A stretch of 55,884 nt of DNA from a virus. The notes beneath the pieces are model-generated. The model was not told where the DNA came from, searched no databases, and saw nothing but the letters and a program-made list of their open reading frames with translations. The stretch covers positions 1 to 55,884 of IMG/VR virus record IMGVR_UViG_3300050821_008002; one strand, 5' to 3'. Positions 26,879 to 46,907 of this stretch are shown here, in pieces. The first letter of the stretch is position 1. Each line of letters starts with the position of its first letter. The translations under genes were made by a program, and so were the position numbers.

Positions 26879-27733
26879 ATGACCATCAGAAAAGTTGTAT
26901 CGCTCTTTCTTCTTCTGGCGGGTTTGGCTGTACTGGCAGTGGGCCAGCAGGGTCAGAACGCTTTAACCGCAACCAACCTCTCAAGCTCGATTTCGAGCGG
27001 AACCACGCAATTCTGCCTGTCTTCGGTCACGGGCATTAACGCTCCAGGGCCGTCGGCAACGCCGGTGAGCTGGATCTATGTGGATCGTGAAGCTATTGCG
27101 ATCATGGGAGTCAATACCAGTACCGGCTGCGTATCGGTGCGACGTGGGGATCTCGGAACTCGCGCCGGTGCGCATGCTGCTGGCCAGGTAGTCCTGATCT
27201 CGCAGGCCTACCAGACGCAGTTGGGACTCGGAGGCAATCCCGTAAACAACGGATTCGACGATCACGATCCATCGGTCGGCTCGTTGTGCTATTCAACGAG
27301 TTCGCCGCTGGTCAGTCTGCCGCCGGCGTATCCACTCCTCAATGTGCTGACCGGAGCGCAATGGCTGTGCTCGACACTCACCAACGAATGGGTGCCGGGC
27401 TTCCAGAACGCTCTGGCACCGGGGTCGGCTGCCCCCACCACGGCGGTTGCTTCAGCCGCCTCGATCACGCCGAGCGGTCCCTTGTTTCACATGACGGGAA
27501 CCACGCAGATCACACTCATCAACGTGCCTGTGGGCTTTGCCGCCAACGGCACTACGGCGAACGTTGGAGGAGGGCAGTTTTGCGTGATTCCGGATGCCGC
27601 CTACACCACGGCGACGGGCGGGACCGCCACCGCCACGGCTGTGCCTTTGAAGAAAGCCAGTACCGCCGTAGCCGGTCAGACCATGTGCTTTACCTACGAC
27701 CCGGTGAATAAGCTGTTCGACGCGTCGTACTAG
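26879..27733 (+). CDS. secreted late protein following the capsid gene (284 aa)
   Basis: A Sec signal peptide is clear: MTIRK, a hydrophobic run (VVSLFLLLAGLAVLAVG) and a cleavage region near residue 23. The mature part is Ser/Thr/Gly/Ala-rich and beta-like, with paired cysteines, as in secreted adhesin-type proteins. In P22-like phages this slot would hold a head or tail gene without a signal. It may be exported to coat the cell surface or capture matrix, or be a decoration protein carrying an unusual leader. GTG/ATG choice is clear (ATG with AAAAGGAAA upstream). Confidence 0.7.
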   Translation: MTIRKVVSLFLLLAGLAVLAVGQQGQNALTATNLSSSISSGTTQFCLSSVTGINAPGPSATPVSWIYVDREAIAIMGVNTSTGCVSVRRGDLGTRAGAHAAGQVVLISQAYQTQLGLGGNPVNNGFDDHDPSVGSLCYSTSSPLVSLPPAYPLLNVLTGAQWLCSTLTNEWVPGFQNALAPGSAAPTTAVASAASITPSGPLFHMTGTTQITLINVPVGFAANGTTANVGGGQFCVIPDAAYTTATGGTATATAVPLKKASTAVAGQTMCFTYDPVNKLFDASY

Positions 27734-27754
27734 GACCTGTCCGCACACACGCTT

Positions 27755-27779
27755 TGGGCGTTGAGCGCATCAGCGCCCA
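27755..27779 (+). terminator. stem-loop after the secreted protein gene
   Basis: TGGGCGTTGA pairs with TCAGCGCCCA around GCGCA with one G-U pair. A weak T-containing stretch follows (CTCATTTC). Possible partial terminator or mRNA stabiliser. Confidence 0.5.
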
Positions 27780-27812
27780 CTCATTTCAAAATCTCAGAAA
27801 AGGAAGATTCCC

Positions 27813-28273: not shown

Positions 28274-28279
28274 AAACGA

Positions 28280-28285
28280 ATCTTA
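28280..28285 (-). promoter_or_regulatory. TANNNT box, leaderless pattern, for gene 28273
   Basis: Minus strand TAAGAT, six bases (TCGTTT), GTG. Confidence 0.55.
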
Positions 28286-28299
28286 CCAAGGAGACTCTC

Positions 28300-28862: not shown

Positions 28863-28868
28863 GCGCCG

Positions 28869-28874: not shown

Positions 28875-28878
28875 ACCC

Positions 28879-28971
28879 ATGACCAACCGCGATTTCACGA
28901 TGATGCTGATCGGGGCCGGGGTTGCCGTTGTGTTCATGTGCCTTGCCATGTGGCTGCTGGGGTATTTCTAA
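28879..28971 (+). CDS. very small membrane protein (30 aa)
   Basis: ATG 28879 to TAA 28971, one base before the next ATG at 28973. Residues 9-28 (MLIGAGVAVVFMCLAMWLLG) are one hydrophobic span. Tight coupling to the head-completion gene supports it. Unknown function. Confidence 0.45.
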   Translation: MTNRDFTMMLIGAGVAVVFMCLAMWLLGYF

Positions 28972-28972
28972 C

Positions 28973-29785
28973 ATGCCAGTTCTTCCCGTAACGAATCCCT
29001 TAGCTCTCTCCGCGACGGACTTCATCAAGTCCGCCCTGCGGTTAGTCGGTGCCCTGCGCTCCGGCCTGACCCTCACCAACGACGAGTTGCGGGATTCGCT
29101 GATGGTTCTCAACTCGATGCTCGACTCCCTCTCGATCGAGCGGACGCAGATTCCGGCAGTCAGCATCGTCTCAACAAATACGGCACAGGTCCCGCTGGCG
29201 CTGGTTCCGAATCAGGCGTCGTACAAACTGGGAAACGCTTTAGGCACGGAAGACTTCCTCTTGCCCCGTCCCTCGCGTCTGGAGCGGGTTTCCATCATGT
29301 ACTCGGCCTCGCAATCCACTCCAGTCGAGTTGCCGATGGAGATGCTCGATAACCAGCAGTGGCAGGGCATCACCAACAAATCAACTCCTTCACTTCTGCC
29401 GCAGGTCTGCTTCGTGGATAAGTCGGAGAGCGTGTTCCCGGACATGCTGCTCTACTTCTGGCCGGTGCCGACGCAGGCGAATCCGGTGATTCTCTACCTG
29501 TGGCAATTACTTCAGCAGTTCACCAGCCTCACCGCGCAGTTCTTATTCCCGCCGGGTTATGCGGAGATGTTGCGCTATCAGCTGGCAGTCAGGCTCGCGG
29601 CGGAGTTTCCCTGCGACCTGGCGAAATTCCAGATCGTGCAGAAACTGGCGGCGGAGGCGAAGGAGCGGATCGCCGGGCTGAACGTGGAAGCGCAAGTCGC
29701 AGTGTGTGATGAAGCGATCGTTGGAAGTTACGGGAAGATGGGGAACATTTTCACCGGGACAGCGAATCGTAGTCTGAGGTACTGA
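28973..29785 (+). CDS. gp4-like head-completion protein (270 aa)
   Basis: The start L-S-A-T-D-F-I-K-S-A-L-R-L-V-G and the segment L-T-N-D-E-L-R-D-S-L-M-V-L-N-S-M-L-D-S-L resemble the P22 gp4 tail accessory factor family, whose longer homologues reach this size. The C-terminal half has repeated helices with F-P-P-G-Y-A-E-M-L-R-Y-Q-L-A. It probably seals the portal after packaging and bridges to the next tail component. Place between coat and gp10-like genes is as in P22. Confidence 0.75.
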   Translation: MPVLPVTNPLALSATDFIKSALRLVGALRSGLTLTNDELRDSLMVLNSMLDSLSIERTQIPAVSIVSTNTAQVPLALVPNQASYKLGNALGTEDFLLPRPSRLERVSIMYSASQSTPVELPMEMLDNQQWQGITNKSTPSLLPQVCFVDKSESVFPDMLLYFWPVPTQANPVILYLWQLLQQFTSLTAQFLFPPGYAEMLRYQLAVRLAAEFPCDLAKFQIVQKLAAEAKERIAGLNVEAQVAVCDEAIVGSYGKMGNIFTGTANRSLRY

Positions 29786-30776: not shown

Positions 30777-30782
30777 GGAGAC

Positions 30783-30788: not shown

Positions 30789-30799
30789 GCAAATGAGAT

Positions 30800-30998: not shown

Positions 30999-32801
30999 AT
31001 GAGATTTGGCTTTGTCGGTCCCGCGTACTTATTCGCTTCCCCCTTGGTTGCCGCCGAGCAGCTGATCAACTGGCGTCCCATCAAGGCGGAATCCCCGAAT
31101 GCGCGGACCCAGTTTGCCCTCCTGCCTACTTCGGGACTGAGTCTCTTCGCCACACTCAAGGCCGGACTGCCTTCGGTGCGCGGGGAATGGACGGGAAACG
31201 GACGCGCCTTCTGCGTTGCGGGAACGCACCTGTTTGAACTGAATGCACTCGGCGGAGTGGCCGATTACGGCGATAACAGCGTTCCGAATAACAACATCGA
31301 GGATGATGGGCTGCCCGCGACAATGGTTGCCGGCGGAACCGTCGGGGGAGTGATTCTCGGCAACGCGCAGGCGATCAAGAGCGCCACGATCTCCAGTCCC
31401 ACCACGGCGGCGATTGTGGTCGCATCCGTCGCCGGATTCCAGGTCAACGCGAATGCCGTCATCGCCGGAATTACGAATCCGCTCTTCGCCCAACTCAACG
31501 GCACCTGGGTCGTCGCCTCGATCGTGGGGACGACGGTGAATCTCACAACCTCCGGACTCACCGTACAACCGATGACGGTCTTGGCCGCAGGGACGGCCAC
31601 GCCGAGTTCTACCGCAGCTGGGGCTTATCCTTCGCAACTGCTGATTTGCTCGGGTGGAAACCTCACCGTATTTTCCCTGAGCCAGAACGCCTTCCAGCCC
31701 ATGACCACCCCGCCGTCGGAAAACCTGATGGTGGATTTCATGGACGGCTACTTCATCGCGCTCCAGGCCAACAATACTTTCAGCGTTTCCAATCCCGAAG
31801 ACGCGACCACCTGGCCGGGATTGTCGATCTCCCAGGTGCAGGTGTTTTCCGATCAACTGCTTTCGATCATCGCAGCCAATCGCTTGCTCTGTGTCTTCGG
31901 CTCGAAGCGCGCCGTTTTCTATTACAACTCCGGAGCGCCGCTGTTTCCCTTCGACGTCGTCAGCGGCGGCTTCATGGAAGTGGGGATCGTCGCGCAATTC
32001 TCCGCCGCGCGCATCGCCACGCGCCAGGGCACGACGATTCTCTGGTTAGGGGGAGATGAACGCGGACAGGGCGTGGTCTATGCCGCCAATGGCTTCACTC
32101 CGCAACGAGTGTCGGATTCCGCTCTCGAATACTGGATGTCGCAACAAGCGACGATCTCCGATGCGGTCGGGATGGCGCGCCAGGAAGAAGGCCAGAACTT
32201 CTACGATCTCTGGTTCCCCTCGGCAAATGCAACCTGGACGCTCGACATCGATCTCGGCTGGTGGCACCGCCGCAGCTCCCTCGTCAATGGAATAGAAGCG
32301 GCCCACCTGCAGCGCTCCCACATGAATGCCTTCGGTTATCACCTGGTGGGAGACCGGACCAGCGGCAACGTGTACCGGCTGAGCACGAACTTCCCGACTG
32401 ACAACGGCGTGCCGATTCTGCGGACGCGAGTCGGCCCCACGATTGAGAACGAAGGCGGCCAGATCACGGTCCCGATCAACGAATTCCAGGTGGACTTCGA
32501 AACCGGCTTAGGACCCATTCCGCCACTGACCGATGGCTTCGGCAACCCGCGCGATCCCTATGCGATGTTCTCCTACTCGGAAGACTACGGAAAGACCTGG
32601 ACTCCGGAGCGACAGATTGCCTGCGGCCAGGGCGGAAACTCGAAAGTCGTGGCCATCGATCGGAGGCTGGGCAGCTGGCGCAGCTGGACGCCTCGCGTAA
32701 GGGTCTCCGACCCGATTCCCTGGCGCATTGCAGATGCCTATGTGAACGGAACACAAGATCAGAAACAGCGGCTCTCGAAGCAATTGGCGGCAATCAGCTA
32801 A
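30999..32801 (+). CDS. gp10-like tail hub / DNA-stabilisation protein (600 aa)
   Basis: The order of segments fits the P22 gp10 family: an N-terminal region with repeated beta blades, F-L-V-A-related strands such as Y-F-I-A-L-Q, then L-L-C-V-F-G-S-K-R-A-V-F-Y (compare F-I-V-C-F-G-S in P22), G-I-V-A-Q-F-S-A-A-R-I, and a C-terminal domain with Y-S-E-D-Y-G-K-T-W. It is 128 residues longer than P22 gp10 (472), mostly in an insert near residues 100-215. It closes the portal-gp4 complex and leads to the tail needle. Confidence 0.85.
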   Translation: MRFGFVGPAYLFASPLVAAEQLINWRPIKAESPNARTQFALLPTSGLSLFATLKAGLPSVRGEWTGNGRAFCVAGTHLFELNALGGVADYGDNSVPNNNIEDDGLPATMVAGGTVGGVILGNAQAIKSATISSPTTAAIVVASVAGFQVNANAVIAGITNPLFAQLNGTWVVASIVGTTVNLTTSGLTVQPMTVLAAGTATPSSTAAGAYPSQLLICSGGNLTVFSLSQNAFQPMTTPPSENLMVDFMDGYFIALQANNTFSVSNPEDATTWPGLSISQVQVFSDQLLSIIAANRLLCVFGSKRAVFYYNSGAPLFPFDVVSGGFMEVGIVAQFSAARIATRQGTTILWLGGDERGQGVVYAANGFTPQRVSDSALEYWMSQQATISDAVGMARQEEGQNFYDLWFPSANATWTLDIDLGWWHRRSSLVNGIEAAHLQRSHMNAFGYHLVGDRTSGNVYRLSTNFPTDNGVPILRTRVGPTIENEGGQITVPINEFQVDFETGLGPIPPLTDGFGNPRDPYAMFSYSEDYGKTWTPERQIACGQGGNSKVVAIDRRLGSWRSWTPRVRVSDPIPWRIADAYVNGTQDQKQRLSKQLAAIS

Positions 32802-34078: not shown

Positions 34079-34275
34079 TGCCAGATCCGGCCCAGGAGCG
34101 CTTTTCTCAACTGGTCGACCGGCACGTCGGCTTCGAATTGTTCGACCCGGAACGAGCGAAATTGCTACCGAAGAAAACTTACGTCGCCATCTCTGGAAAG
34201 TATGTGCTCCTCGGCTTTGACGAGACCGAGCAGGCCAAAGAGTTTTTCACCAGCGCAATCGTCGCAACTTTATAG
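34078..34275 (+). CDS. hypothetical protein (65 aa)
   Basis: ATG overlaps the last base of the sulfotransferase stop (TAATG). Small alpha/beta protein with T-Y-V-A-I-S-G-K-Y-V-L-L-G-F-D-E and a helical end. May be a partner of the sulfotransferase, given coupling. Unknown function. Confidence 0.55.
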   Translation: MPDPAQERFSQLVDRHVGFELFDPERAKLLPKKTYVAISGKYVLLGFDETEQAKEFFTSAIVATL

Positions 34276-34285
34276 GAAACCTTTC

Positions 34286-35176
34286 ATGCCAGCCTTTCTC
34301 GCAATCGGCGCAGTCGGAGCGGGCACTTCCCTGCTTGGGGGCTTGTTCGGATCGAGTGCTGCTTCGAACGCAGCCAAGGAGCAGGAACAAGCCGAACAGA
34401 AGGGGATCAACTTCCTCGAAAACGAGCAGTCGACGGGGATGGCGAATTATCAGCCCTACCTCACTGCCGGCGGCACCGCCACCAACACGCTCGCGGATCT
34501 GTTGGGAACGCCAGGCCAAGGACTCCTCACACCCTGGACCCAGCAATTCACCGCACCGACGGCCGCACAAGCCGCGCAGACTCCTGGCTACCAATTTCAA
34601 CTCCAGCAGGGCCTGAATGCCGCCCAGAATTCCGCGGCTGGCCAGGGATCCCTGCTCTCCGGTCGAACCCTCGCAAGCCTCAACAACTACGCGCAGGGCA
34701 CGGCGTCGACCAACTATCAGAACACGTTCAATAACGACCTCACCAGCTACCAGTCTGCCTACAACACCTTCCTCAACAATCAGAACAATCAATATGCGCG
34801 GCTGATGGGCCTGTCCGGAGAAGGCTTAACAGCGGCACAGGGCGCGGGCAGCCTGCTAGCGAATCTCGGCGGGGACACAGCCTCGCTATTCGCTGGACAG
34901 GGCGCGGCCGCGGCCGCAGGCACCATCGGATCCGCCAATGCCTGGAGCGGAGCACTCGGCGGAGCGACAAATTCACTCGCAAATGGCTTGACTCTGCAGT
35001 CCCTGCTTGGAAACGGCGGCATGCCGTCGGCCGATACCGCCAGCTTCAACCCGAACATCTGGATGAGCGGCGGAGGGACGGGTATCCCAGGAAGCGGTCC
35101 AGCACCCACTGCGCCGTATAGCCCGTTTAATCTGCCGCCAGGCTCCTTCGGCTCGCTCTCCAGTTTGAACGTTTAA
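34286..35176 (+). CDS. gp7-like ejection protein (296 aa)
   Basis: ATG 34286 after TAGGAAACC. The protein starts with A-I-G-A-V-G-A-G-T-S-L-L-G-G-L-F-G-S-S, a Gly/Ala-rich hydrophobic segment typical of podovirus DNA-transfer (ejection) proteins of the P22 gp7 kind, followed by Gln/Ala/Asn-rich helices. In P22, gp7, gp20 and gp16 form a trans-envelope channel. Place after the gp10-like gene agrees. Sequence identity to gp7 is low, so the name rests on features and order. Confidence 0.65.
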   Translation: MPAFLAIGAVGAGTSLLGGLFGSSAASNAAKEQEQAEQKGINFLENEQSTGMANYQPYLTAGGTATNTLADLLGTPGQGLLTPWTQQFTAPTAAQAAQTPGYQFQLQQGLNAAQNSAAGQGSLLSGRTLASLNNYAQGTASTNYQNTFNNDLTSYQSAYNTFLNNQNNQYARLMGLSGEGLTAAQGAGSLLANLGGDTASLFAGQGAAAAAGTIGSANAWSGALGGATNSLANGLTLQSLLGNGGMPSADTASFNPNIWMSGGGTGIPGSGPAPTAPYSPFNLPPGSFGSLSSLNV

Positions 35177-35184
35177 CCCTCACT

Positions 35185-35610
35185 ATGTACCCACTCAGCT
35201 CACTTGGTGGTTTCGGCGGTCCGATGCCGTTCGGGGGGAATCCCACCCCATGGAGTCCGATCCTGCGCGCCAACCCGGTAGGAACTCCCTCGCCTTGGGA
35301 TCCACAGTCGCCGATCGCGAGGCCTGGACCAGTCCCCTTTCAACCCCAGCCGGTGAGTCCCGCGCCGGCGGATCCGGGTGGGTTCGGAGGGCGGCCGCCG
35401 ATCGTACAGAATCCGGTTCAGTTCGGACCTGGGGGGCAAGCGCCAGTCGTCAATCCCGCGCAGCCCGTGGGCGGACCAGCGCCGTACCAGCCCATGCCCA
35501 GTCAGCCCATGCCAAATCCCTTCGGTCTGGGTGGAGGAGGCGGAGGCTACTTCGGACGCCCAAGCTACCCACTTTCCGCGCTCAGTGGCGGGGGAGCGAG
35601 GTTCTTCTAA
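35185..35610 (+). CDS. Pro/Gly-rich virion protein (141 aa)
   Basis: ATG nine bases after the previous stop. Composition is Pro, Gly, Gln, Asn and Phe, with no charged core: probably an extended or disordered ejection-module protein (N-P-F-G-L-G-G-G-G-G-G-Y-F-G). Stop is directly followed by the next ATG. Confidence 0.6.
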   Translation: MYPLSSLGGFGGPMPFGGNPTPWSPILRANPVGTPSPWDPQSPIARPGPVPFQPQPVSPAPADPGGFGGRPPIVQNPVQFGPGGQAPVVNPAQPVGGPAPYQPMPSQPMPNPFGLGGGGGGYFGRPSYPLSALSGGGARFF

Positions 35611-37173
35611 ATGCCGATCTCGATTCCATCGATGCCGAACTACAACGTGGCGCCTCCGGCGGTGCGGTCGCCTTTAGAGCAGTACGGGAAGATGCTGCAA
35701 CTGAGAGCGCTGTCGGGACAGGTGCAGCAGCAGCAGCAGATGCAACCGCTGCAGGTTCAGGAAGCGCAACAGGACGTGCAGTCGAAGACGCTGGAGAACC
35801 AGAAGCAGCAAATGGCTCTCGACTCCCAGCAGGCACTGATCAAGGCCGTAGGGTCCGGGTTCCTTACGAAATACGCCGGGAAAGATGCGGGCAACGACGC
35901 CGGTTTCGACGCGAACGGAGCCTTCAATGACCTGGTGAAACCAGTGGCGCAGGGCGGATATGGAGTGTTGCCCGACCAGGCGAGCGCGGTGGTGGACTCG
36001 CTGCTGAAACGATCGCAGACCATGGCGGAGACGGCCAAAACCATCGCGCAGGGCGGCGAAGCGGTTGCCAACAGCCGGGCAAAAGGCTTCGACATGCTGC
36101 ACGATCGGGTTGCCGACGTGGTTCAGAATCCGAAGAGCGCCGCGCCACTGCTCTATGACATCGTGCACAATCCGCAAATCTTCGCGGGAGTTCCGCCCGA
36201 TGATCTGCAACACGTCCGCGACGCGCTGGTCGCCCAGGACGCGGATAAATTGAAGGCGGTGGGTGGGGCACTGGACGTCGATAAGAAACTCGCCGACTTC
36301 CACAAATCACAGACAGAAGAGACCATCGCTCAACAGAAAGTGATTCCTGCAGGCGGCGGGATGTCGCCCGATACGCAGCAGCAAGTGAAGAAGGACGTCG
36401 CCGTCGCCACGAACCCGGCAATTCAGGCGGGGAAGGTCCAGGTCGAAACCGAGAAAGCGAAAGCGGAACAACTCATCAAGGGCCTGGCCGAACCGGGCTA
36501 CGCTTTCAATCCGCAAACCGGCGCGACCCAGCTTACCGACAAAACGGCTTATCTGCAGGCGGGCGGGACTCTTCAGGGATTCCGTCCAGTGGGTGAAAAA
36601 GATATTCGCGAAGACACGATGCTCACCAACCGCCTCGCGGACGTGCATCAGAAAATCGCAGAGTACGATCAAGCTCTACAAAAGCCGGTCAGCGCCAAAG
36701 ATCAGGGCAACATGGCGGCGCTTCTCGGAACCGAGGGCGTGAAACTGGGTGCATTTGGCACCGAAATCCCGATGGACCGCGTCAACGCCGCGCTCAACAA
36801 GGAAAATCTCAAGGGTCTCAGCCCCGAGGCGCGTGACCAGCTCATCGCCTACAAGAATGCGCGCGAGGCGATGCTCGGCTATAAAACCGTCCTCTCTGGT
36901 AGCGCACGCGGCTCCGACAAGAGTATGGACCTCCTCACTCAGGCTCTGCCCGATCCATCGACGACCGACCCAGATTTCTCCCGGCGCTCGATTGACGCCT
37001 TCCACCAGAATCTGCGTGTCGTCGGACAAGGATTGCCCGACCTGCCGGGGATCAAGTCGCCGCGTGAGATTGAGGCCGAAGTCTGGGGCAACAAGGGCAC
37101 GGAGAAGAAGACCCCAACCGGGCCGACTGCCACGAACAGCAAAGCGGCGAAATACGGAGTTCCGATTCCGTGA
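35611..37173 (+). CDS. internal/ejection protein 2 (520 aa)
   Basis: The N-terminus P-L-E-Q-Y-G-K-M-L-Q-L-R-A-L and a Gln-rich helix (residues 25-75) fit phage internal virion proteins that unfold during ejection. Long helices continue to the C-terminus. It stands where gp20 stands in P22. No lysozyme motif is seen. Stop overlaps the next GTG. Confidence 0.6.
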   Translation: MPISIPSMPNYNVAPPAVRSPLEQYGKMLQLRALSGQVQQQQQMQPLQVQEAQQDVQSKTLENQKQQMALDSQQALIKAVGSGFLTKYAGKDAGNDAGFDANGAFNDLVKPVAQGGYGVLPDQASAVVDSLLKRSQTMAETAKTIAQGGEAVANSRAKGFDMLHDRVADVVQNPKSAAPLLYDIVHNPQIFAGVPPDDLQHVRDALVAQDADKLKAVGGALDVDKKLADFHKSQTEETIAQQKVIPAGGGMSPDTQQQVKKDVAVATNPAIQAGKVQVETEKAKAEQLIKGLAEPGYAFNPQTGATQLTDKTAYLQAGGTLQGFRPVGEKDIREDTMLTNRLADVHQKIAEYDQALQKPVSAKDQGNMAALLGTEGVKLGAFGTEIPMDRVNAALNKENLKGLSPEARDQLIAYKNAREAMLGYKTVLSGSARGSDKSMDLLTQALPDPSTTDPDFSRRSIDAFHQNLRVVGQGLPDLPGIKSPREIEAEVWGNKGTEKKTPTGPTATNSKAAKYGVPIP

Positions 37174-38240
37174 GCACACCCACGCCAGTAATCTTTGACG
37201 ATGGATCGAAAGCGCTGGTCCCCCCAGGGAAGCTGTCGGACGCGCTGAAAGACGGGGGCAAGGTCGCGCAGGCGATGCACTTCGATGATGGCTCGAAAGC
37301 CTACGTCACGCTCGACCGTGTGCACGATGCGATTCACGATGGCGGTCAACTGATGGGCATCGCGCCGCAACTTCCGGTTCCGGCCATGGAGAAGTCACCG
37401 TTGTCTCCTACCGAGCAAGTTGGCGCACATCTCGCCGGAAAGGTCGCGTCGATGGCGACTCACGCGGCGGACGCAGGCAAGGGCCTCGCCGATGATGTGT
37501 ATGACGTTTCCACGCCGAACATCGCGACGCAGCTCTATCGCCACGCGCAGGGACTTCCGAATACTCTCAACAAAATACCCCTGAAAGCGGTTACTGCTTT
37601 TTTCACGGCTGCCGGATTGCCCGAAAGCGAACTCGCGGAAGCCGCGCCCGCCGCGGAAGCCGCCTCGAAAGCGGCACCAGCAGCCGCAGACGCCGCTCCA
37701 GCGGCGGCCAAGGTGGCAGAAACAGCGGAAGCGAAGACGCCTTCCACCTCGGTGAATCTTGACGCCCCCCGCACCCTTTCCGGGGAAGCCGCGCTCCGCC
37801 AGGTGCTCACGGGCCAGGACACCGACAACCTGATGAAGATTGCGAAGTCGCGCGGCATCAACGTCACCCAGGAATCGCAACTCAGGTCCGGCATCGCCGG
37901 TCCGAAGCTGATCAATAAGATCATCGACGATTTCTCGGATGACGAACTCGACAACTTGCGCTCGACCTACATCGAGAACACGCGCATGGGAAAACATGAC
38001 TTCGGTGAGATCGGTCCGGAGGCGTGGAAGACGATGGGCTTGCAGACCTATTTCCCGGACGTGAAGATTCCACAGGCGCAACTGGATCGGGTCGCGAAGT
38101 CGATCGCGAAGAGTGGAGCGAACAGAGCGGTCAGTGCTACACCAGCGCCGGGAGATGATCTTTCGGGGATTTTGCAGGAATCGTTAAAACACGCGGTGGC
38201 TAAGAAGACCCTCGCGAACCTGGCGGGCGGCGCGCCATAG
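37170..38240 (+). CDS. internal/ejection protein 3 (356 aa)
   Basis: GTG start overlaps the previous stop. Two copies of a V-x-F-D-D-G-S-K-A motif are seen near residues 5 and 32, each opening a similar unit, so the N-terminus is a tandem duplication. An Ala-rich membrane-like helix lies at about 135-190. It stands where gp16 stands in P22. C-terminal 40 bases overlap a leftward gene. Confidence 0.6.
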   Translation: MSTPTPVIFDDGSKALVPPGKLSDALKDGGKVAQAMHFDDGSKAYVTLDRVHDAIHDGGQLMGIAPQLPVPAMEKSPLSPTEQVGAHLAGKVASMATHAADAGKGLADDVYDVSTPNIATQLYRHAQGLPNTLNKIPLKAVTAFFTAAGLPESELAEAAPAAEAASKAAPAAADAAPAAAKVAETAEAKTPSTSVNLDAPRTLSGEAALRQVLTGQDTDNLMKIAKSRGINVTQESQLRSGIAGPKLINKIIDDFSDDELDNLRSTYIENTRMGKHDFGEIGPEAWKTMGLQTYFPDVKIPQAQLDRVAKSIAKSGANRAVSATPAPGDDLSGILQESLKHAVAKKTLANLAGGAP

Positions 38241-38475: not shown

Positions 38476-39975
38476 ATGAAGCCCAAAACCTTAATTCACA
38501 GCCTCGTATTCGCCGCGGTACTCCTCGCCTGCGCTTGTCTCCCTTCGAGCGCCCAGACCGTCTCCCCCTTCATGGGCTTAGGGAACTACCAGGTCTTCGA
38601 TAACAATGGCGCCCTCTGCACTGCCTGCGTCGTTTACAGCTATCAGGCAGGAACCACCACTCAGCAGGCGACCTACACCGACTACACCGGCTCCTTTACG
38701 AATCCGGATCCCATTCCCTTCTCCAGTGGCGCACGAGTCGCAATCTGGCTGACCTCGACCGCCTCTTACAAATTCGTTCTCTGCCTGCAGAACGACGGGG
38801 CCGCATGCGCTCCTTCGGATGTCTTGTTCTCGATGGACCACGTTCCAGGCTGTGCCGGCTGCTCGACTGGTGGAAACACTTTCACGGGAACATTTATCTC
38901 AGGCACGCCGAACCCCGCGACCACCGGCATTCTTGAGCTTGCCACCACGGATTCCATCTGCTGGCGCAACACGGCGAACAATGCAAACTTGTGTATCTCG
39001 AAAGACGCGAGCGATGTGCTGACCTGGACGGGATCAACGATCAAGCTCCCGGAAACTTCCTGCACCGTCGGCGGCGCATCGCAGGACTATCTCTGTCCGA
39101 ACAGCGCCACGCACCACATGAGCCTCAACAATAACAACGGAGGCTATGGGTCGATTGCCACAGTGGCCACGCCTGGAGTTGCCGGGGATCTCGCAGGCTT
39201 CGCGGCGAACGGGATTGACCTACTGGATTCCGGCGCCACACCTCCCGCTTCGGCCGCAGTCACTTTCTCCACGACCCCCACCTTTACCGCGACGTCCCAG
39301 AATCAATTGTTCACGATGACGCTGACCGGGAATGTCAGCGGCTCAACCCTGGTGATGACGGGGCTTCCGACTCCCTCTCTCGTGGCATTCAAGTTGACGC
39401 AGGATGCGACCGGAGGCCGAACTTTTACCTGGCCGCCGAATGTCCTGGGCGCGGCCGTGCCGAGCCCGGTGGCGAATGCGGTGACTATGCAGCAGTTCGT
39501 CTGGGACGGAACGAATGCGCGCGCGCTCGTGGTATCGACAGCGGCATCCTTTAATGCCCCCCAGCGCGTCGTGCTCGGAACGAATGTCTCGATGACGGCG
39601 AACGTGAACACCACGATCATCACCGAAACCGTGACCTTCCCCTCGGCCGCCGGAACCTACCGCGCCGACATGCGCTACGGCCTCTATATCACGGCGGGAT
39701 CCAATGTCTGCGTCGCCGGCGTGGTGGATGCGACAAATTCGGTCAGCTATGCCGTCAGCGGCCAGAATGCGAACGGCAGCGGCGCGATTGCTCTGGCGGG
39801 CTCGGAACTTTCAAGCGCCACTTACGCGCCATCCGCGACGGTGACTTTCAACCTGCAGGCAGTCTGCAACAACGGCGCCGGCGGACTCAGTGGAGCAACC
39901 GTCTCAGCTCCCATCGTCGGATTGAGTCCGGCAGAGAGCAGCTACCTCGAAGTCACGCCGGTGCTGAGCAACTAG
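38476..39975 (+). CDS. large secreted beta-rich protein 1 (499 aa)
   Basis: Starts MKPKTLIHSLVFAAVLLACA and has A-Q-T just after: a Sec signal peptide with cleavage near residue 27. The N-terminal mature region has Y-Q-V-F-D-N-N-G-A-L-C-T-A-C-V-V-Y-S-Y-Q-A-G-T-T-type strands, which look like a carbohydrate-active or fibre N-terminal domain with a paired-Cys loop. The rest is Thr/Ser/Gly-rich. It takes the position of tail-fibre or spike genes, but the signal peptide argues for export. Confidence 0.7.
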   Translation: MKPKTLIHSLVFAAVLLACACLPSSAQTVSPFMGLGNYQVFDNNGALCTACVVYSYQAGTTTQQATYTDYTGSFTNPDPIPFSSGARVAIWLTSTASYKFVLCLQNDGAACAPSDVLFSMDHVPGCAGCSTGGNTFTGTFISGTPNPATTGILELATTDSICWRNTANNANLCISKDASDVLTWTGSTIKLPETSCTVGGASQDYLCPNSATHHMSLNNNNGGYGSIATVATPGVAGDLAGFAANGIDLLDSGATPPASAAVTFSTTPTFTATSQNQLFTMTLTGNVSGSTLVMTGLPTPSLVAFKLTQDATGGRTFTWPPNVLGAAVPSPVANAVTMQQFVWDGTNARALVVSTAASFNAPQRVVLGTNVSMTANVNTTIITETVTFPSAAGTYRADMRYGLYITAGSNVCVAGVVDATNSVSYAVSGQNANGSGAIALAGSELSSATYAPSATVTFNLQAVCNNGAGGLSGATVSAPIVGLSPAESSYLEVTPVLSN

Positions 39976-39988
39976 GAATTTGATTCCC

Positions 39989-41560
39989 ATGAAACGACTT
40001 GCCCTCTTTTTTGCGCTTCTCTTTTCCCCGCTACTTCTCGCGCCGGCAGCCCTGTTCGCACAGGGTGTCTTCATCCCTCCGCAGACGGCCTTCAAGAATA
40101 TCAATGGCATCGTGATGCCGATCGCAAATGCAACCATCACCGTCTGCGCGGCGAATGCCGGCGGAATTCCCTGCACGCCAGTCCTGACCAACACCATCTA
40201 CAAAGACGGCGCTTTAACGCAGCATCTCTCAAACCCATTCACCAGCGACGCAAACGGCAATTACCAATTCGCAGTCGCGGCAACCGCTGCGACCTATACG
40301 GTGACGGTCACCTCTCCCGGTTATGGGGGATCGTCGTACCAAGTCTCCGTGGCAACAGGAGGCGGCTCTGGAATCTCAGACTTCTTCGGCAATACCCCCG
40401 GCCCAACGCTTTCTTCCCTCGTTGACCCAACGACGATAGTAGATTTGGCGGGTAATAACATCGCGTTCTCGGGTCCAGGCGTTGGGAAAGGGTTGTCTTG
40501 GCTAGACTCCTCAGGTGACGGTTGCTCTGGTTCGGATGGCAACTTGAACTGCCAAGACGCCAATGGGGATTTTTTCAGCGCGTCCGACGGGGTAGTTAAA
40601 GTGGGAGCGGTAAGTGGGCCACTTTTTGAGATTTTGGGAGATTCGTACTCAATCAATGACGGCACCGCGACTACGATCAGCAGCACCGGTGGGGCGTTAA
40701 CTTTCGCTAATCATGTAACACTCACGGGATGCGCGGGTGGGACATATGTCAAAGCAGACGGCTCTGGGTGCGGAATACCAGGGAACGGCCTGCCCTCCTC
40801 TCCGCAGACTGGCGATACCATCGCCTACAACGCTTACGGCTCCTCGACATGGAACGCGGTGCTCGGCGGACCGCGGCAATTCGCAACGATTTTTCAATCC
40901 ATCGATAATGGGGCCCCGACTGCCTATGGAGTTATCAGTGGCGTCAACCATTCTGGCAATATTGCCAATGTGTTTGCTAGCGCCACGGATGGGGCCGGAC
41001 AGACTTTTTCCGCGGCCGCAACGGCCTCGACCAGTACGGTGATCGGCGAAGACGCAGGAGAAGGGGCGAATTATACCCAGTTCGGCTTTGGCAGTTTTTA
41101 CCGCTGGTCCAACAGATTCGCCGCGGGCAACACGACGAATGTCCGCTACTGGATGGGGCTGACGAATTACAACACCGCACTCACGGGCTGCGCGGCTCAG
41201 TCCGTTCGCGGCAACACCTGCTTTGCGGCGGATTATCCCAGCACCTTCAGCATCGCCTTCCGATTCTCCGCCGGCACGGACACGCACTGGCAAGCGGTCA
41301 CGCAGACTCAGACTGCCCAAACCGTCGTGGATACCGGCGTTGCGATCGACACCAATTCGCATCTTTTTGAATTCACCAACTCGGGCAGCGCAGTGAATTA
41401 CTTCATCGACGGGACCCTGGTCGCGACGATCACCACGAACATTCCCTCTTCGGTGGGATCGGCCGGCTACACCCCGGCGATGTTCTGGGTTGGTGATAAC
41501 AAGAACACCGCGACCGCCATTTCCGCGAACGAATACTGGATGACGATGACCCTGAAGTAG
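39989..41560 (+). CDS. large secreted protein with C-terminal lectin-like domain (523 aa)
   Basis: I choose ATG 39989 (a TTG three codons upstream is possible). Signal peptide: MKRLALFFALLFSPLLLAPA with A-L-F-A-Q cleavage. An N-terminal domain resembles that of its neighbour (Y-K-D-G-A-L-T-Q-H-L-S-N-P-F-T). The C-terminal about 180 residues have beta strands like a concanavalin-type domain (A-F-R-F-S-A-G, W-M-T-M-T-L-K). The first half may anchor, the second bind sugars. Acts outside the cell. Confidence 0.7.
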   Translation: MKRLALFFALLFSPLLLAPAALFAQGVFIPPQTAFKNINGIVMPIANATITVCAANAGGIPCTPVLTNTIYKDGALTQHLSNPFTSDANGNYQFAVAATAATYTVTVTSPGYGGSSYQVSVATGGGSGISDFFGNTPGPTLSSLVDPTTIVDLAGNNIAFSGPGVGKGLSWLDSSGDGCSGSDGNLNCQDANGDFFSASDGVVKVGAVSGPLFEILGDSYSINDGTATTISSTGGALTFANHVTLTGCAGGTYVKADGSGCGIPGNGLPSSPQTGDTIAYNAYGSSTWNAVLGGPRQFATIFQSIDNGAPTAYGVISGVNHSGNIANVFASATDGAGQTFSAAATASTSTVIGEDAGEGANYTQFGFGSFYRWSNRFAAGNTTNVRYWMGLTNYNTALTGCAAQSVRGNTCFAADYPSTFSIAFRFSAGTDTHWQAVTQTQTAQTVVDTGVAIDTNSHLFEFTNSGSAVNYFIDGTLVATITTNIPSSVGSAGYTPAMFWVGDNKNTATAISANEYWMTMTLK

Positions 41561-41670
41561 CTTCCCCGGCGAATCCCGTCCGCCCTGCACGTCCTAAAAG
41601 CCTCTCGATTTCAGAAACTCGCAATCCCAAAACTCTCCATTTCCACAACTCAGACATGAAAGGAACTCTC

Positions 41671-44600
41671 ATGTACTTACGGCGATTCCTATTGCTGCTC
41701 TTCGCCTGCTGCGCGGTCGGTCCGCCGGCGCTGATGAGCCAAGCGAGCGGCACCATCACCACAACCTCCACCTCGACCAACTGCCCCGGCATCGACGCTT
41801 CGAGAATGGCTACCGTTGCCATTCAGGTGACCGGCACCTGGACGGGCACATTGACGCCGGGAATTTCGGTCGCGGGACAGCCCGCCCAACCGATCCAGGT
41901 CACGCCCGCCAATTCCCAGACGCCGCAGACCACGATCACCGCGAATAATGTCTACTATGCCGCGGGGGGAGGCATCATTTCCGTCTGCGGACCGACGTCG
42001 AGCGGGACGGCGAACATTTACTTTCAGCCGGTGCCTGGAACCGCGCGCGGTGCACCTGGCGGTGGGAGCGGGGGCGGATTTACCGCCGCCCTCGACCTCA
42101 CGGGTACGCCCAGTTCCCAGAAAGTCGTCGGCCTGCACTTCAGCACCAACGCTTTCAGTCTCTGTTCCACCGACCCCACGGCGGGACAATTCCTTTTTGC
42201 CTCCTCGAGCAGCGCGATCTGCCCGAACAGCCTGCTCATCGACAGCGGCACTGTGTTCAGCTACGCCGGAACCGGAGGCATCACCGCACCCGTCCTGGGC
42301 GCCACCGGCTCCGGAGCTGGCCTTAACTACTTCACCCAGGGCGCGGATAACAGCGCCTCCTGTCCAGCCAATTCCGACTGCGAAGAAGCTCCGGCTTCGA
42401 TCAGCACTTCGTTTACGCGAGTCAGGGAATCGGCGGGACCGTCGGTAACTTCGGTGGAGCAATATGCCCCGCTGTCGGGCGGGAAGACGGCGAAAAGTTT
42501 CGTGAACACGCTGGGCGCGGGGAATTTTCTGGCGTGCGGCCCCGGCCCCTGGATCGATGTCACCTGCTATGGAGCGAAGGGGGACGGGCTCTACAACAAC
42601 ACGGGCGGCACCTCCACCACCAGTGGAACCACGACGGTGACCACCTCATCGGGAGCCACGCTCTTCGCCGCGACCGATTGCAGTGGCGGATCGGGCTGCA
42701 CGGGGACCGTGAACAAGTTAATCGCTTTTCCCGCAGGCGGCCTGGCAACTCCCACGCTCGGGACAGTATCGACGGCGGCCGGTTCCTTGACGCTGCCTCA
42801 TGCCTGCTTCTTTATCACGGCGATTCAGGACAATGCCACGCTGCCGATCACGAGCGGCGCGCCCAGCATCAACGGCGAGTCGTTGCCAACCGCAGAAAGC
42901 TGCACGGCGCTGACCGCGCAAAATCTCACCATGACCGCGCCCACCCTGCCGACCAATGCAACCGGCTATCGGGTGTACTTCGCGGATGAAGCCAGCGCCA
43001 CAGTGGGGCACGTGACTAGCGGAATGGTAGAAGTCAGTCAGATCATCCCCGGAACCGCCTACGCCGGATGTACACAGACCGCCAATAGCAGCCGGAATGT
43101 TCGGGACGGCGCCTGCGATCCCGGCTCGACGCTAACCATCAGCGCTTACACCTACATCGGTTTCCTGCCGCCCCAAAAAGCGGGATGGTTGAGCACGATT
43201 GCGAGTTTTGTGAGCACAACATCGGTCACCATTACCGATGCAATCCCCTCTGACATTGGAGGCCACACGACGGAAGTGGCTTGGGGGACCGCCAACGACG
43301 CGGCATACGCGAGCGCGCTAGCGGCGTGCCCCAACAATGCCGGCATCGCCATCCTGAAGGGAAACGGGTGCACGCTCTTTTTCCCGCCGGTCGGAACGCA
43401 AGCGAGTCCAGCAACTTTCACGGGCCGCTATGCGAGCCAGAACGGAATCACGGTGCTGCAGGATGGCGTCATCCTAAAGACGCCCGGCTCGGTCGACGCG
43501 CTGCCAAATTCCGGCAACTCCACGCTATACAACAACTGGGGAACGACTTCGCTCTGGGTCATGGGCAGGAGTTATGGGCTGCAGTGGGGAAGCTCCGCTG
43601 CCAGCTACCAGGGGGGCGGGACGGAGCAAGCCAACATCGAAGACATGAGCGGAGTTGGTTACGGGGCACTGTTCGTGACCGCGCCCGCGGGAGGCGCGAC
43701 CAGCGACCACCTACAGTTCCGCAGGCTCTATGGCACAAACTTTTTCTCCGGGACCTGCATCACGCTCGGCAACGTGCAGATTCTAGAGTTCGACCATTTT
43801 GGCTGCCTCTCCGAAGCCGGAATCATGGGGGAGGACTTCGTCAGCAACAACCAATTTAGTAATGGGGACCTGGTGGGCGCGATCAACAGCTACACCGGCG
43901 CGGGCTGGGGCGTGCTGCTCGAATCGAACCCCGCGACTACGCAAATCACTGGCGGTAACCAGTTTCACGACATGAAGATTCGGGATTTCTATCAAGGCCA
44001 TTACCGCCTGAAAAACGCCCAAACCACGCAGGTGTTCGAGTCAAAAGATGAAAACATCGCCATGAGCGGGGGCGCCAGTTGCTCCGGGGGCACGGCCTGC
44101 TACGGAACCATGATCCAGATGGATGACGTGACGAACTCTGGCCGATCTTTCCTGAACCAGTTCGTAGGGGGAACCTGGGCACGCGCTGTCAGCTTCTTCA
44201 ATATTGGCGTTAACTCCTTCAATAACACAATCCTCGAAACCGGAGCGGAGATCATCTCTGGCACGGTCTGCACCGACAATGGAACGAACGACGACATCCT
44301 CGTGGGTGGAAGCCTCAGCGTCAACTGCGTCAACAAATTTAACGGTTCGCTCTCGACCCTGCCGGGAACGCAGCGCCTCGTCGCCGATAGTTCTCCGATC
44401 ACAGCTACCACCGCAGGGACGGCGGTCGCAATATTTACGTTCGGGAGTTTTGCCGCAAACGCAGCCTACAGCTTCCATTGTTCGGGCACGACCACGCAAG
44501 CGACAGCAGGAGCTGGCATTGGGATCGCCTTCAAGGCCAACGCGACCGCCCCGACGAACATGGAAGCGCATGCGCTGGTCAACACCTCGGCCACGGCCAT

Positions 44601-44817
44601 CAATGGGCAATCGAGCGGCAACGTCACTTCGACCACCATCACCGCGATTTACACCGGAGTGACCGGCACGGTGACGACGCAGCTTCCTTGGTACGTGGAC
44701 GGTTCCATTGAAACCGGATCGACCGCACCGACCGCGCTGACGATTAACTTCTTCTCCATCAGTTCGTCGGATGCAGTCACCGTGAAGCGGGATAGCTTCT
44801 GCACCATCGGCCTGTGA
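41671..44817 (+). CDS. secreted beta-helix spike-like protein (1048 aa)
   Basis: ATG 41671 has GAAAGGA six bases upstream; a start at 41656 would add five residues and lacks a ribosome-binding site. Signal peptide: MYLRRFLLLLFACCAVG. Near residue 290 the segment W-I-D-V-T-C-Y-G-A-K-G-D-G is the entry motif of pectate-lyase-type beta-helices in tailspikes and depolymerases (usually V-x-D-Y-G-A-K-G-D-G). The helix runs to about residue 900 and ends in a strand-rich cap. It probably degrades or binds extracellular polysaccharide. Confidence 0.75.
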   Translation: MYLRRFLLLLFACCAVGPPALMSQASGTITTTSTSTNCPGIDASRMATVAIQVTGTWTGTLTPGISVAGQPAQPIQVTPANSQTPQTTITANNVYYAAGGGIISVCGPTSSGTANIYFQPVPGTARGAPGGGSGGGFTAALDLTGTPSSQKVVGLHFSTNAFSLCSTDPTAGQFLFASSSSAICPNSLLIDSGTVFSYAGTGGITAPVLGATGSGAGLNYFTQGADNSASCPANSDCEEAPASISTSFTRVRESAGPSVTSVEQYAPLSGGKTAKSFVNTLGAGNFLACGPGPWIDVTCYGAKGDGLYNNTGGTSTTSGTTTVTTSSGATLFAATDCSGGSGCTGTVNKLIAFPAGGLATPTLGTVSTAAGSLTLPHACFFITAIQDNATLPITSGAPSINGESLPTAESCTALTAQNLTMTAPTLPTNATGYRVYFADEASATVGHVTSGMVEVSQIIPGTAYAGCTQTANSSRNVRDGACDPGSTLTISAYTYIGFLPPQKAGWLSTIASFVSTTSVTITDAIPSDIGGHTTEVAWGTANDAAYASALAACPNNAGIAILKGNGCTLFFPPVGTQASPATFTGRYASQNGITVLQDGVILKTPGSVDALPNSGNSTLYNNWGTTSLWVMGRSYGLQWGSSAASYQGGGTEQANIEDMSGVGYGALFVTAPAGGATSDHLQFRRLYGTNFFSGTCITLGNVQILEFDHFGCLSEAGIMGEDFVSNNQFSNGDLVGAINSYTGAGWGVLLESNPATTQITGGNQFHDMKIRDFYQGHYRLKNAQTTQVFESKDENIAMSGGASCSGGTACYGTMIQMDDVTNSGRSFLNQFVGGTWARAVSFFNIGVNSFNNTILETGAEIISGTVCTDNGTNDDILVGGSLSVNCVNKFNGSLSTLPGTQRLVADSSPITATTAGTAVAIFTFGSFAANAAYSFHCSGTTTQATAGAGIGIAFKANATAPTNMEAHALVNTSATAINGQSSGNVTSTTITAIYTGVTGTVTTQLPWYVDGSIETGSTAPTALTINFFSISSSDAVTVKRDSFCTIGL

Positions 44818-46907
44818 AGCGATTGCCTTTTCAGATGCGCTGGGTTTGGACCATTCCGTTGCTGTGCTCGATGGCCTTTTGTTCGCTGGCCTTTGGGACG
44901 ACGCGCTACGTTGCCGCGAGTGCTGGAACCTTCAGTGGAGGGGCCAGCGTCATCACCGGCTCAGTTGCCAACCTAACATTCTCGGCGGCAGAAACGGTAA
45001 CGCAAGCCACGTCGGGCGCGACTGCGACGTTTTCCAGCATCACCGTGGGCGGATCGGTTCCGGGTTCGATGATCGTGACCAGCGTGTCGGGAACTCCGGA
45101 CAGCTCTCACGTCTGGACTGGCGGCACAAGCGGCGCGACGTTCACGCCAACAGCCACTCCTCTCTCCCGTTGCAATGGGCAGACCGCGATCACGGTTGCC
45201 ACTTGGAACTCCGTTAATGCCAGCGGCGATCAAGGAATTCTTTGTGGCACCGTCTCAGCCCCCGCAGGTTCGACCAATTACATTCAGTTCAACGCCAGCG
45301 GCACGTCGGGTGCGCCCACTCAAATCGTCTTCGACGCCGGAGCGGTTCTAACGGCGACCTACTGGTCAGGAGCGGCCATCCTGATCGGCCATAACAACTA
45401 CATCACGATCAACGGAGGACCGAACGGCACAATTCAGGCGACGGCAAACGGGACGGGACTCGCCAACCAGCAGGACAACGGCATCGGCGTGGACTGCGGG
45501 TCGGTGAACCCGTGCTCAAACATCATTGTCGAGTATCTGACGGTTGCGAATCTATACGTCCATTCCTGCACGACGGTCATCGCGAGCTGCACCGACGAGG
45601 GCGGCGGGAACGTGGAAGGCATCCGCATCTTCGGAGGCTCGAACGACACCGTGACCGGGAACACGGTTCACGACACGCATTGGGGCATCACGATGCTCTA
45701 TGGCAGCTTGGCCGCGAACTCCACGAACCTGCTGGTGTACGGCAATACCGTCTCGAACAATGACCACGGAGTCATCTTCGGGGATCAGGGTGCGAATTCG
45801 ACCGCGACAGGCAGCAACTGCTCGAACGCGATTTACGATAACGACATAAGCAATTTCCAGCCCTGGGACGATGCCGGGGACGACTTTCACCACGACGGCG
45901 TCCACGCCTGGGCGAACAATGCTCCCGGCTCGAACTACTACGTCTGTGTGTACTCCAACTCCCTGCACGGCGATGGCGGCTACAACTTCAATTCGTTCAT
46001 TTTCATGGAATCGGCATCGCAAAGTTCGGCGGTGTTCAACAACATCCTGAACCTAACAGCGAATGGGCAGCACGGTAGCAGCCAATGCACGGGAACCGGC
46101 ATCCTTGGCCCCGCAACCGGCTCGGGCACAAACGGGATCAGTCTCGGCGTTTATAACAACACGGTCCAGGGGTGGAGCACGAGCGACTGCGAAGCCATCG
46201 GAATTCAAGAACAGACCAGCCCGACGATCGAAAACAATATCGCGCTCACGGCGAACGCCGCCACCTATGTTGCCAGCAACTCGGGAACCGTCGCATGGGA
46301 TTACAACACCTATTTCAACATCGGCAGCGGGGCGTGGCACTTCACCACTTTTTCTGCTTGGCAGACGGCGGGAAACGACGTGCACGGACAAAATGCGAAC
46401 CCTAACCTGACTGCCAGTTTCACGCTGAATAGCGGTTCTCCGGCGATCGGAGCGGCAACTAATTTAACTTCTCTCGGGATCACGGCCCTCGACTCTGGCG
46501 CACCTCAGACTTTTGGCGCGAGCGGATCATGTGGAACGGGGTGTCTGGCGCGGCCTTCGACGGGAGCGTGGGACGCGGGCGCTTATCCATTCTCCAGCGC
46601 TAACACCTACACCATCGCCATCTCCTCGATCGTCGGCCACGGCACCGTAACCAGCTCGGATTCAGTCCTCAACTGCACCACAGGCACCACAGGCACCTGC
46701 AGCGATCCCGGCGCCAGCGGCACCGTAACCCTGACATTTACCCCGGCAGGCGGATATTCGCTGTCCTCGGTGACCGGCTGCACGCTGTCGGGAAATACCT
46801 GCTCCCTGACTGCGGCGGCGACCATCACGGCGACATTCACGGCAAACGGTGCTGCCGGCGGCCTGTTGGGAAAATCGGGCATGCTCGGGCAGGCGGGAGT
46901 GAAGTAA
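44814..46907 (+). CDS. secreted right-handed beta-helix protein (697 aa)
   Basis: GTG overlaps the previous stop (GTGA). A Sec signal peptide follows MKRLPFQM (W-V-W-T-I-P-L-L-C-S-M-A-F-C-S-L-A-F-G). Residues about 190-500 have repeated N-x-V-x-x-N and H-x-G-I units (V-H-D-T-H-W-G-I, V-S-N-N-D-H-G-V, I-S-N-F-Q) of a parallel beta-helix like pectate lyase. The last about 90 residues hold a V-T-S-S-D-x(n)-C...G-G-Y-S-L bacterial repeat, seen in secreted cell-wall proteins. Candidate capsule depolymerase. Confidence 0.75.
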   Translation: MKRLPFQMRWVWTIPLLCSMAFCSLAFGTTRYVAASAGTFSGGASVITGSVANLTFSAAETVTQATSGATATFSSITVGGSVPGSMIVTSVSGTPDSSHVWTGGTSGATFTPTATPLSRCNGQTAITVATWNSVNASGDQGILCGTVSAPAGSTNYIQFNASGTSGAPTQIVFDAGAVLTATYWSGAAILIGHNNYITINGGPNGTIQATANGTGLANQQDNGIGVDCGSVNPCSNIIVEYLTVANLYVHSCTTVIASCTDEGGGNVEGIRIFGGSNDTVTGNTVHDTHWGITMLYGSLAANSTNLLVYGNTVSNNDHGVIFGDQGANSTATGSNCSNAIYDNDISNFQPWDDAGDDFHHDGVHAWANNAPGSNYYVCVYSNSLHGDGGYNFNSFIFMESASQSSAVFNNILNLTANGQHGSSQCTGTGILGPATGSGTNGISLGVYNNTVQGWSTSDCEAIGIQEQTSPTIENNIALTANAATYVASNSGTVAWDYNTYFNIGSGAWHFTTFSAWQTAGNDVHGQNANPNLTASFTLNSGSPAIGAATNLTSLGITALDSGAPQTFGASGSCGTGCLARPSTGAWDAGAYPFSSANTYTIAISSIVGHGTVTSSDSVLNCTTGTTGTCSDPGASGTVTLTFTPAGGYSLSSVTGCTLSGNTCSLTAAATITATFTANGAAGGLLGKSGMLGQAGVK

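What the first reader, a model, noticed from the sequence alone, without database searches (positions are those of the whole stretch)
26879..46907. Late proteins with Sec signal peptides in virion-gene positions
The genes at 26879, 38476, 39989, 41671 and 44814 all begin with clear Sec signal peptides, although virion proteins are normally assembled in the cytoplasm. Two of them are beta-helix proteins resembling depolymerases. Exported spikes could clear capsule or matrix around the infected cell before lysis, act as soluble decoys, or be attached to the virion from outside after lysis.
Basis: partly seen in the sequence, partly recalled or inferred. Interest (0 to 1): 0.75.

Follow-up and report, generated by a model that had tools for sequence, protein, structure and literature searches.

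The report
Phage spikes exported before virion assembly
A large group of soil bacterial viruses puts export signals on exactly the proteins that would sit on the outside of the virus particle, and the cysteines of those proteins come almost only in even numbers once the signal is removed, so these parts are probably folded outside the cytoplasm and joined to the particle at or after cell lysis, which is not how tailed phages are thought to be built.

Summary
All five genes begin with Sec-type signal peptides (SPs) by a simple scorer calibrated on E. coli (20/21 exported, 0/59 cytoplasmic proteins). The window is a P22-like podovirus; relatives sit in Acidobacteriota genomes.

The SPs are conserved by position: the gene after the major capsid gene (52/52 non-redundant intact copies) and the spike genes. 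No portal, scaffold, capsid, gp4-like, gp10 or ejection protein has one at its true start.

Three tests indicate real export. (1) SP sequences diverge, but a small-x-small|Q cleavage site sits exactly before the conserved domain (19/19 in spike 1); about half of the SPs on an Acidobacteriota chromosome show that site, against 2/33 in E. coli. (2) Mature proteins have even cysteine counts (48/48 post-capsid, 17/18 and 9/10 spikes); counting SP cysteines, only 35/48; capsid protein 25/48. (3) Sister podoviruses carry the same spike domain starting at Met, without SP or cysteine pair.

The mature domain of spike 38476 matches virion tailspike head-binding domains. I favour export, oxidative folding, then docking on virions at or after lysis. 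Export is well supported; docking is inferred. A purely secreted role (as for WceF) remains possible. The beta-helix claim is weakly supported.

The parts
25541..26809 (+). major capsid protein, P22-coat type; no signal peptide; cytoplasmic control for cysteine parity
   Evidence: phrog_283 E 4.5e-57; 80-98% identity in relatives; Cys parity 25/48 even
26879..27733 (+). post-capsid exported protein, 284 aa; signal peptide about 26879-26944, mature 262 aa with 6 Cys
   Evidence: SP score 7.27; SP in 52/52 non-redundant intact relatives, 50/50 of those with an MCP in the locus lie directly after it; mature Cys even 48/48; phrog_1101 tail protein E 4.6e-7, 12/13 members
28922..29785 (+). gp4-like tail accessory protein (true start probably downstream of 28922); no SP
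   Evidence: phrog_12985; 0/24 relatives with SP; naming as gp4-like is by position and resemblance
30999..32801 (+). gp10 / packaged-DNA stabilisation (head closure Hc3); no SP at its start
   Evidence: phrog_578 E 2.8e-70; tblastn to podophages annotated packaged DNA stabilization protein
34202..38240 (+). three putative ejection proteins (34202, 35611, 37170) of P22-type position; no SP at their starts, almost no Cys
38476..39975 (+). spike 1: signal peptide 38476-38553, then a tailspike head-binding domain (about residues 27-125), variable C-terminus; 12 mature Cys
   Evidence: SP score 6.66; -3/-1 rule and +1 Q in 19/19 of the family; PDB tailspike head-binding domains 9vyg E 7.7e-8, 7eeq E 8.5e-5; 17/18 even mature Cys
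39989..41560 (+). spike 2: signal peptide 39989-40060, conserved N-domain weakly like CarboxypepD_reg, variable C-terminus; 8 mature Cys
   Evidence: SP score 6.9; family in 10+ relatives; 9/10 even mature Cys; Pfam CarbopepD_reg_2 below cut-off
41656..44817 (+). spike 3, 1053 aa (alternative start 41671): signal peptide of about 28-30 aa, DVTCYGAKGDG stretch of tailspike/pectate-lyase look, 24 mature Cys
   Evidence: SP score 6.7; distant relatives L020:12458 and L017:17829; no family hit
44814..46907 (+). spike 4, 697 aa: weak but plausible signal peptide of 26-28 aa; probable parallel beta-helix; 16 mature Cys; overlaps the stop of spike 3
   Evidence: SP score 5.33 (borderline); TIGR03804 E 0.017 and NF041518 E 0.022, both below curated cut-off
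46927..47692 (+). endolysin (46927-47376) and holin-like protein (47396-47692) directly after the spikes
   Evidence: phrog_7 endolysin E 2e-12; holin-like by position, one hydrophobic segment

Best explanation
In this P22-like podovirus lineage the surface parts of the virion are made as Sec precursors: a capsid-adjacent protein (26879) and all the tailspikes (38476-46907). They are exported late in infection, cleaved by host signal peptidase I at a small-x-small|Q site, folded with disulfides in the periplasm of an Acidobacteriota host, and held there. When holin and endolysin open the cell, virions made in the cytoplasm without spikes meet the mature spikes. [quoted passage not shown] Shown by sequence: signal peptides, their positional conservation, the cleavage site at the domain boundary, paired cysteines only in the mature part, and a head-binding domain. 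Inferred: periplasmic retention, docking at or after lysis, and a capsid-surface place for 26879.
For: SPs conserved in the post-capsid gene and the spikes, absent from cytoplasmic virion genes. SP sequence less conserved than the mature start (0.39 vs 0.66 mean identity for spike 1, 44/45 pairs), -3/-1 rule 19/19. Mature Cys even in 48/48 post-capsid proteins (17/17 at 60% identity) but 35/48 if SP Cys are counted; MCP 25/48. The five mature proteins carry 6, 12, 8, 24 and 16 Cys, 2.26% of residues against 0.56% in cytoplasmic virion proteins. Mature N-domain of spike 1 matches solved virion tailspike head-binding domains. Sister podoviruses have the same domain starting at Met, next to gp4/gp10 genes, without SP and without the Cys pair. 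A +1 Q-type site occurs in 18/39 SPs on Acidobacteriota chromosome G242 against 2/33 in E. coli, p 1.5e-4. Those hosts encode VKOR and DsbA-type thioredoxin proteins. P22 tailspikes can join heads in vitro (own knowledge of Israel et al. 1967 PNAS 57:284; a reference with that doi is in the list of PMC3741392).
Against: No proteomics and no phage isolate. WceF of Pantoea stewartii is an exported, non-virion protein that keeps a P22-type head domain (PMC7949094), so the domain alone does not prove virion attachment. Inefficient export with cytoplasmic assembly cannot be excluded. The 26879 protein has no solved relative and its model is weak (pLDDT 69), so a capsid-surface role is positional inference. 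An Acidobacteriota-assigned podovirus-like prophage (G194) has a head-binding-type protein without SP, so the host does not require the arrangement.
Confidence: 0.57

Rival explanations
1. Exported non-virion enzymes: the proteins are secreted to remodel or clear exopolysaccharide or to act as soluble decoys, and the head-binding domain is kept only for trimer stability, as in WceF.
For: WceF has a Tat signal, a P22-type head domain and a trimeric beta-helix, and works outside virions (PMC7949094). C-termini are highly variable, and up to six SP spike genes lie in a row in L017.
Against: No SP-less spike candidate remains in the window to act as receptor-binding protein. The capsid-adjacent gene is exported too. 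The SP-less sister phages carry the same domain next to their tail genes. The domain next to the cleavage site is the most conserved part of spike 1, as expected for a docking domain.
Confidence: 0.2
2. Dual fate: the signal peptides work only partly; one fraction is exported and acts as depolymerase, another stays in the cytoplasm and is built into virions in the normal way.
For: It would keep ordinary cytoplasmic assembly and still give export; several start codons are possible in 41656/41671.
Against: Even cysteine numbers across the families suggest that the functional form is oxidised. SPs are strong and universally kept, with no lineage of this group seen to lose them.
Confidence: 0.13
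3. The hydrophobic N-termini are not cleaved signals but membrane or virion anchors.
For: They are hydrophobic N-terminal helices; 38476 also has a loose LLAC lipobox-like run.
Against: Small-x-small|Q sites at exactly the domain boundary (19/19), SP divergence, and cysteine parity that is restored only when the SP is removed.
Confidence: 0.05
4. Lysogenic conversion or superinfection exclusion: the exported proteins are made by the prophage and coat or modify the lysogen's surface.
For: A tyrosine-recombinase-like gene (14995) and chromosomal remnants in Acidobacteriota (L087) suggest temperate members.
Against: The genes lie inside the late region on the late strand, between capsid and lysis genes; promoter- and terminator-like sites in the region are no more than chance.
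Confidence: 0.05

Closest known systems
P22-type tailspike (gp9) with head-binding domain and its podovirus relatives (PDB 9vyg/9vyh, 7eeq)
   Same: Position in the late region of a P22-like podovirus; N-terminal head-binding domain matched by sequence profile; variable C-terminus.
   Different: Here the domain follows a Sec signal peptide and carries cysteine pairs; the known spikes are cytoplasmic proteins (own knowledge).
WceF of Pantoea stewartii (PMC7949094)
   Same: Exported protein with a P22-type head domain and tailspike-like beta-helix.
   Different: Cellular gene in an exopolysaccharide cluster, Tat signal, not part of a virion; here a whole set of phage late genes carries Sec signals.
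Porphyromonas gingivalis phages with Q-rule signal peptides (PMC10367356)
   Same: Phage genes with signal peptides whose cleavage exposes Q, matching the host's signal peptidase habit.
   Different: There the Q-rule genes are of unknown function, and the SP-like ends of capsid proteins are thought to be cut by the prohead protease; no spike families, cysteine parity or SP-less sister comparison were reported in the passages read.
Filamentous phage coat proteins (pIII, pVIII)
   Same: Virion proteins made as Sec precursors (own knowledge).
   Different: Those are inserted in the membrane and the virion is extruded; here a tailed dsDNA phage with an icosahedral head and lysis genes.

Membership tests
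P22-like podovirus (late region) | P22-type portal, coat, gp10 and gp4-like genes in P22 order | tested here: met
   phrog_156 portal, phrog_283 MCP, phrog_578 Hc3, in order portal-scaffold-MCP-gp4-gp10-ejection
P22-like podovirus (late region) | short tail seen on virions | not testable with these tools
   no isolate
Podovirus tailspike (spike 38476) | N-terminal head-binding domain related to solved virion tailspikes | tested here: met
   9vyg/9vyh E 7.7e-8 to 6.7e-7, 7eeq E 8.5e-5
Podovirus tailspike (spike 38476) | attachment to the virion | not testable with these tools
   needs virion proteomics or cryo-EM
Podovirus tailspike (spike 38476) | begins directly with the docking domain, no export signal | tested here: not met
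   signal peptide in 19/19 of this group; absent in 10/10 SP-less sisters
Sec/SPase I exported protein | positive n-region, hydrophobic h-region, -3/-1 rule | tested here: met
   44814 borderline
Sec/SPase I exported protein | cleavage in the cell | not testable with these tools
   indirectly supported by cysteine parity
Beta-helix depolymerase (41656, 44814) | parallel beta-helix fold | tested here: inconclusive
   44814 sub-threshold TIGR03804; 41656 none
Beta-helix depolymerase (41656, 44814) | polysaccharide cleavage | not testable with these tools
   needs enzyme assay

The most novel reading that the evidence does not exclude
Two-compartment virion assembly in a tailed phage: DNA-filled heads and tail body are made in the cytoplasm, all surface proteins (capsid-adjacent protein and spikes) are made, oxidised and stored in the periplasm, and infectious particles are completed only at or after lysis.
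Probability: 0.5. Interest if true: 0.92.

Novelty: new variant of a known kind. Interest (0 to 1): 0.8.

Why it matters
Tailed phages are taken to be finished inside the cytoplasm, and absence of signal peptides has been used as a sign that a surface protein is of phage origin (PMC6199706). Here a widespread podovirus lineage appears to route its whole outer surface through the Sec system and the oxidising periplasm. That would allow disulfide-stabilised spikes for harsh soils, would mean that spikes are shared among all particles (and phages) of a burst, so that a particle's receptor-binding protein need not match its genome, and would make virion completion depend on lysis. It also warns that annotation pipelines using signal peptides as a host marker will misfile such genes. 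It is directly testable with one isolate.

Tried and rejected
Near-DNA and tblastn searches of GenBank phages gave nothing useful for the spikes (one weak tail-fibre hit). A scan with spike 3 in viral contigs found no relative. AlphaFold models of spike 1 (pLDDT 62) and of 26879 (pLDDT 69) were too weak, and their Foldseek hits (Pgp3, birnavirus VP2, ATP synthase barrels) were not used. The A5 search over Acidobacteriota mostly hit short stretches of long proteins that look like TonB-dependent receptors with carboxypeptidase-regulatory domains; treated as fold-level similarity only. SP hits inside gp10 and 34202 came from internal start codons and were rejected. A host-wide explanation was rejected: other prophages in Acidobacteriota genomes (G356, G204, G194, G290) have no SP on their tail genes. 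Promoter and terminator scans were at chance level.
Full report
What the window is. The record is a 55,884-base virus contig. Its late region has P22-type genes in P22 order: TerS/TerL, portal (phrog_156), scaffold, major capsid protein (phrog_283), gp4-like, gp10/Hc3 (phrog_578), three ejection-type proteins, then spikes, endolysin and holin-like protein. GenBank phages hold only distant gp10 relatives.

The five signal peptides. All five named ORFs exist. SignalP was not available, so I wrote a simple scorer (n-region charge, h-region hydropathy, -3/-1 rule). At threshold 5.3 it finds 20 of 21 known exported E. coli proteins and none of 59 cytoplasmic ones. The five genes score 7.3, 6.7, 6.9, 6.7 and 5.3; the last (44814) is borderline.

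Conservation by position. Relatives found through gp10, which is unbiased with respect to SPs, carry signal peptides on the gene after the capsid gene (15 of 15 with an intact 5' end) and on the spike genes. None of the portal, scaffold, MCP, gp4-like, 32943-type or ejection proteins carries one at its real start; the gp10 and 34202 entries that pass the threshold use internal starts. A wider scan with the post-capsid family gave 52 non-redundant intact copies. Of these, 51 pass the scorer and the remaining one (L141) is plainly an SP by eye; 50 of 50 with an MCP in the locus lie directly after it. One of the two search patterns in that scan includes the cleavage-site residues, so this count alone is partly biased; the gp10-based count is not. 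L017 carries six consecutive SP spike genes. L013 has an extra SP gene between portal and scaffold. A more distant podovirus group (L038-L044) shows SPs on its spikes and, in L038, on the post-capsid gene.

The SP is cleaved at a domain boundary. In 19 of 19 spike-1 relatives small residues stand at -3 and -1 (one Leu at -3) and Q at +1, immediately before the conserved domain. SP sequences are less alike than the first 75 mature residues (0.39 against 0.66 for spike 1, 0.48 against 0.71 for spike 2, 0.54 against 0.64 for the post-capsid protein). On an Acidobacteriota chromosome that itself carries a prophage remnant with ejection genes and three SP spikes (G242, L087), 18 of 39 predicted SPs contain a small-x-small|Q site, against 2 of 33 in E. 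coli (p = 1.5e-4). The phage signals therefore look like host signals.

Cysteine parity. The clearest test is independent of any SP predictor. In 48 non-redundant post-capsid proteins the mature part always has an even number of cysteines (2, 4, 6 or 8); at 60% identity it is 17 of 17. Thirteen SPs carry a single cysteine, so if the SP is counted only 35 of 48 are even. The cytoplasmic MCPs of the same phages are even in 25 of 48, as chance expects. Spike 1 is even in 17 of 18 and spike 2 in 9 of 10. The five mature window proteins have 6, 12, 8, 24 and 16 cysteines, 2.26% of residues against 0.56% for cytoplasmic virion proteins. Relatedness means these are not independent draws, but the counts change in twos. 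That is expected of disulfide-bonded proteins and is hard to explain if they functioned in a reducing cytoplasm. The two Acidobacteriota genomes encode VKOR and DsbA-type proteins.

A natural control. Other podoviruses (L027-L037, L045-L049) carry the same spike-1 domain, but it starts at Met (MTTPIVNLSPFAGAGAQFFDNNG...), and they lack both SP and cysteines in the domain (10 of 10). In them the gene lies next to gp4- and gp10-type genes. On an unrooted tree of the domain one change of the SP label suffices, so this is one or few evolutionary events, not many. The arrangement is not dictated by the host phylum: other prophages in Acidobacteriota-assigned genomes show no SP on tail genes.

What the exported proteins are. 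The mature start of spike 1 matches the head-binding domains of virion tailspikes in the PDB (9vyg/9vyh, 7eeq). Spike 2 begins with a conserved domain weakly like CarboxypepD_reg. Spike 3 has no family hit; spike 4 has sub-threshold beta-helix support. The post-capsid protein shares a small domain with phrog_1101 'tail protein' (12 of 13 members) and has no solved relative. Both AlphaFold models were weak and I draw nothing from their fold searches.

How it most likely works. The proteins are exported by Sec, cleaved and oxidised (well supported, about 0.9). Because no spike candidate without SP was found, and because cleavage exposes a head-binding domain, I infer that the mature spikes dock on virions at or after lysis (about 0.57). 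P22 offers a mechanical precedent, since its tailspikes can join finished heads in vitro (own knowledge; the reference with doi 10.1073/pnas.57.2.284 is listed in PMC3741392). The main rival is a purely secreted role: WceF is an exported bacterial protein that keeps a P22-type head domain (PMC7949094).

Literature. In the open library I found no report of Sec-exported tailspikes. A study of DGR-carrying phages treats lack of SPs as supporting phage origin (PMC6199706). P. gingivalis phages carry Q-rule SP genes of unknown function (PMC10367356). Subscription papers were not searchable.

Limits. The contigs are metagenomic. The host link rests on a phage contig binned with a Bryobacterales MAG and on chromosomal remnants in genomes of the same phylum. 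There is no proteomic evidence.

Noticed in passing
33503-34078: Sulfotransferase-like gene (PF13469 and PF00685 above cut-off) inside the late region between gp10 and the ejection genes, kept in L004, L005/L017 and L009; unusual place for such an enzyme.
   Followed up: no
L090:17506-18009, L021:15480-16004, L019:16238-16996: A further SP protein after the lysis genes (NLYAAGVSFN...), looks all-beta, possibly an outer-membrane protein; no family hit.
   Followed up: partly
L013:2533-4647: Extra 704-aa Cys-rich SP gene between portal and scaffold genes, a place where no spike is expected.
   Followed up: no
L023:13946-15736 (minus): 596-aa SP protein with HEMGHLIGL zinc-metallopeptidase-like motif on the opposite strand of a relative.
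   Followed up: no
G194:C402, L105/L106 (reverse complement 13470-26081): 4203-aa ORF in an Acidobacteriota-assigned podovirus-like prophage directly before an SP-less head-binding-type protein.
   Followed up: no
14995-15600: Tyrosine-recombinase-like protein (by eye), similar-looking ORF in L050:1573-2109; hints that the phage may be temperate.
   Followed up: no
54581-55483: PAPS-reductase/ATP-pyrophosphatase-like protein (by eye) near the right end of the contig.
   Followed up: no
11545-11856: Short ORF with SP-like N-terminus and Cys-rich tail outside the late region.
   Followed up: no
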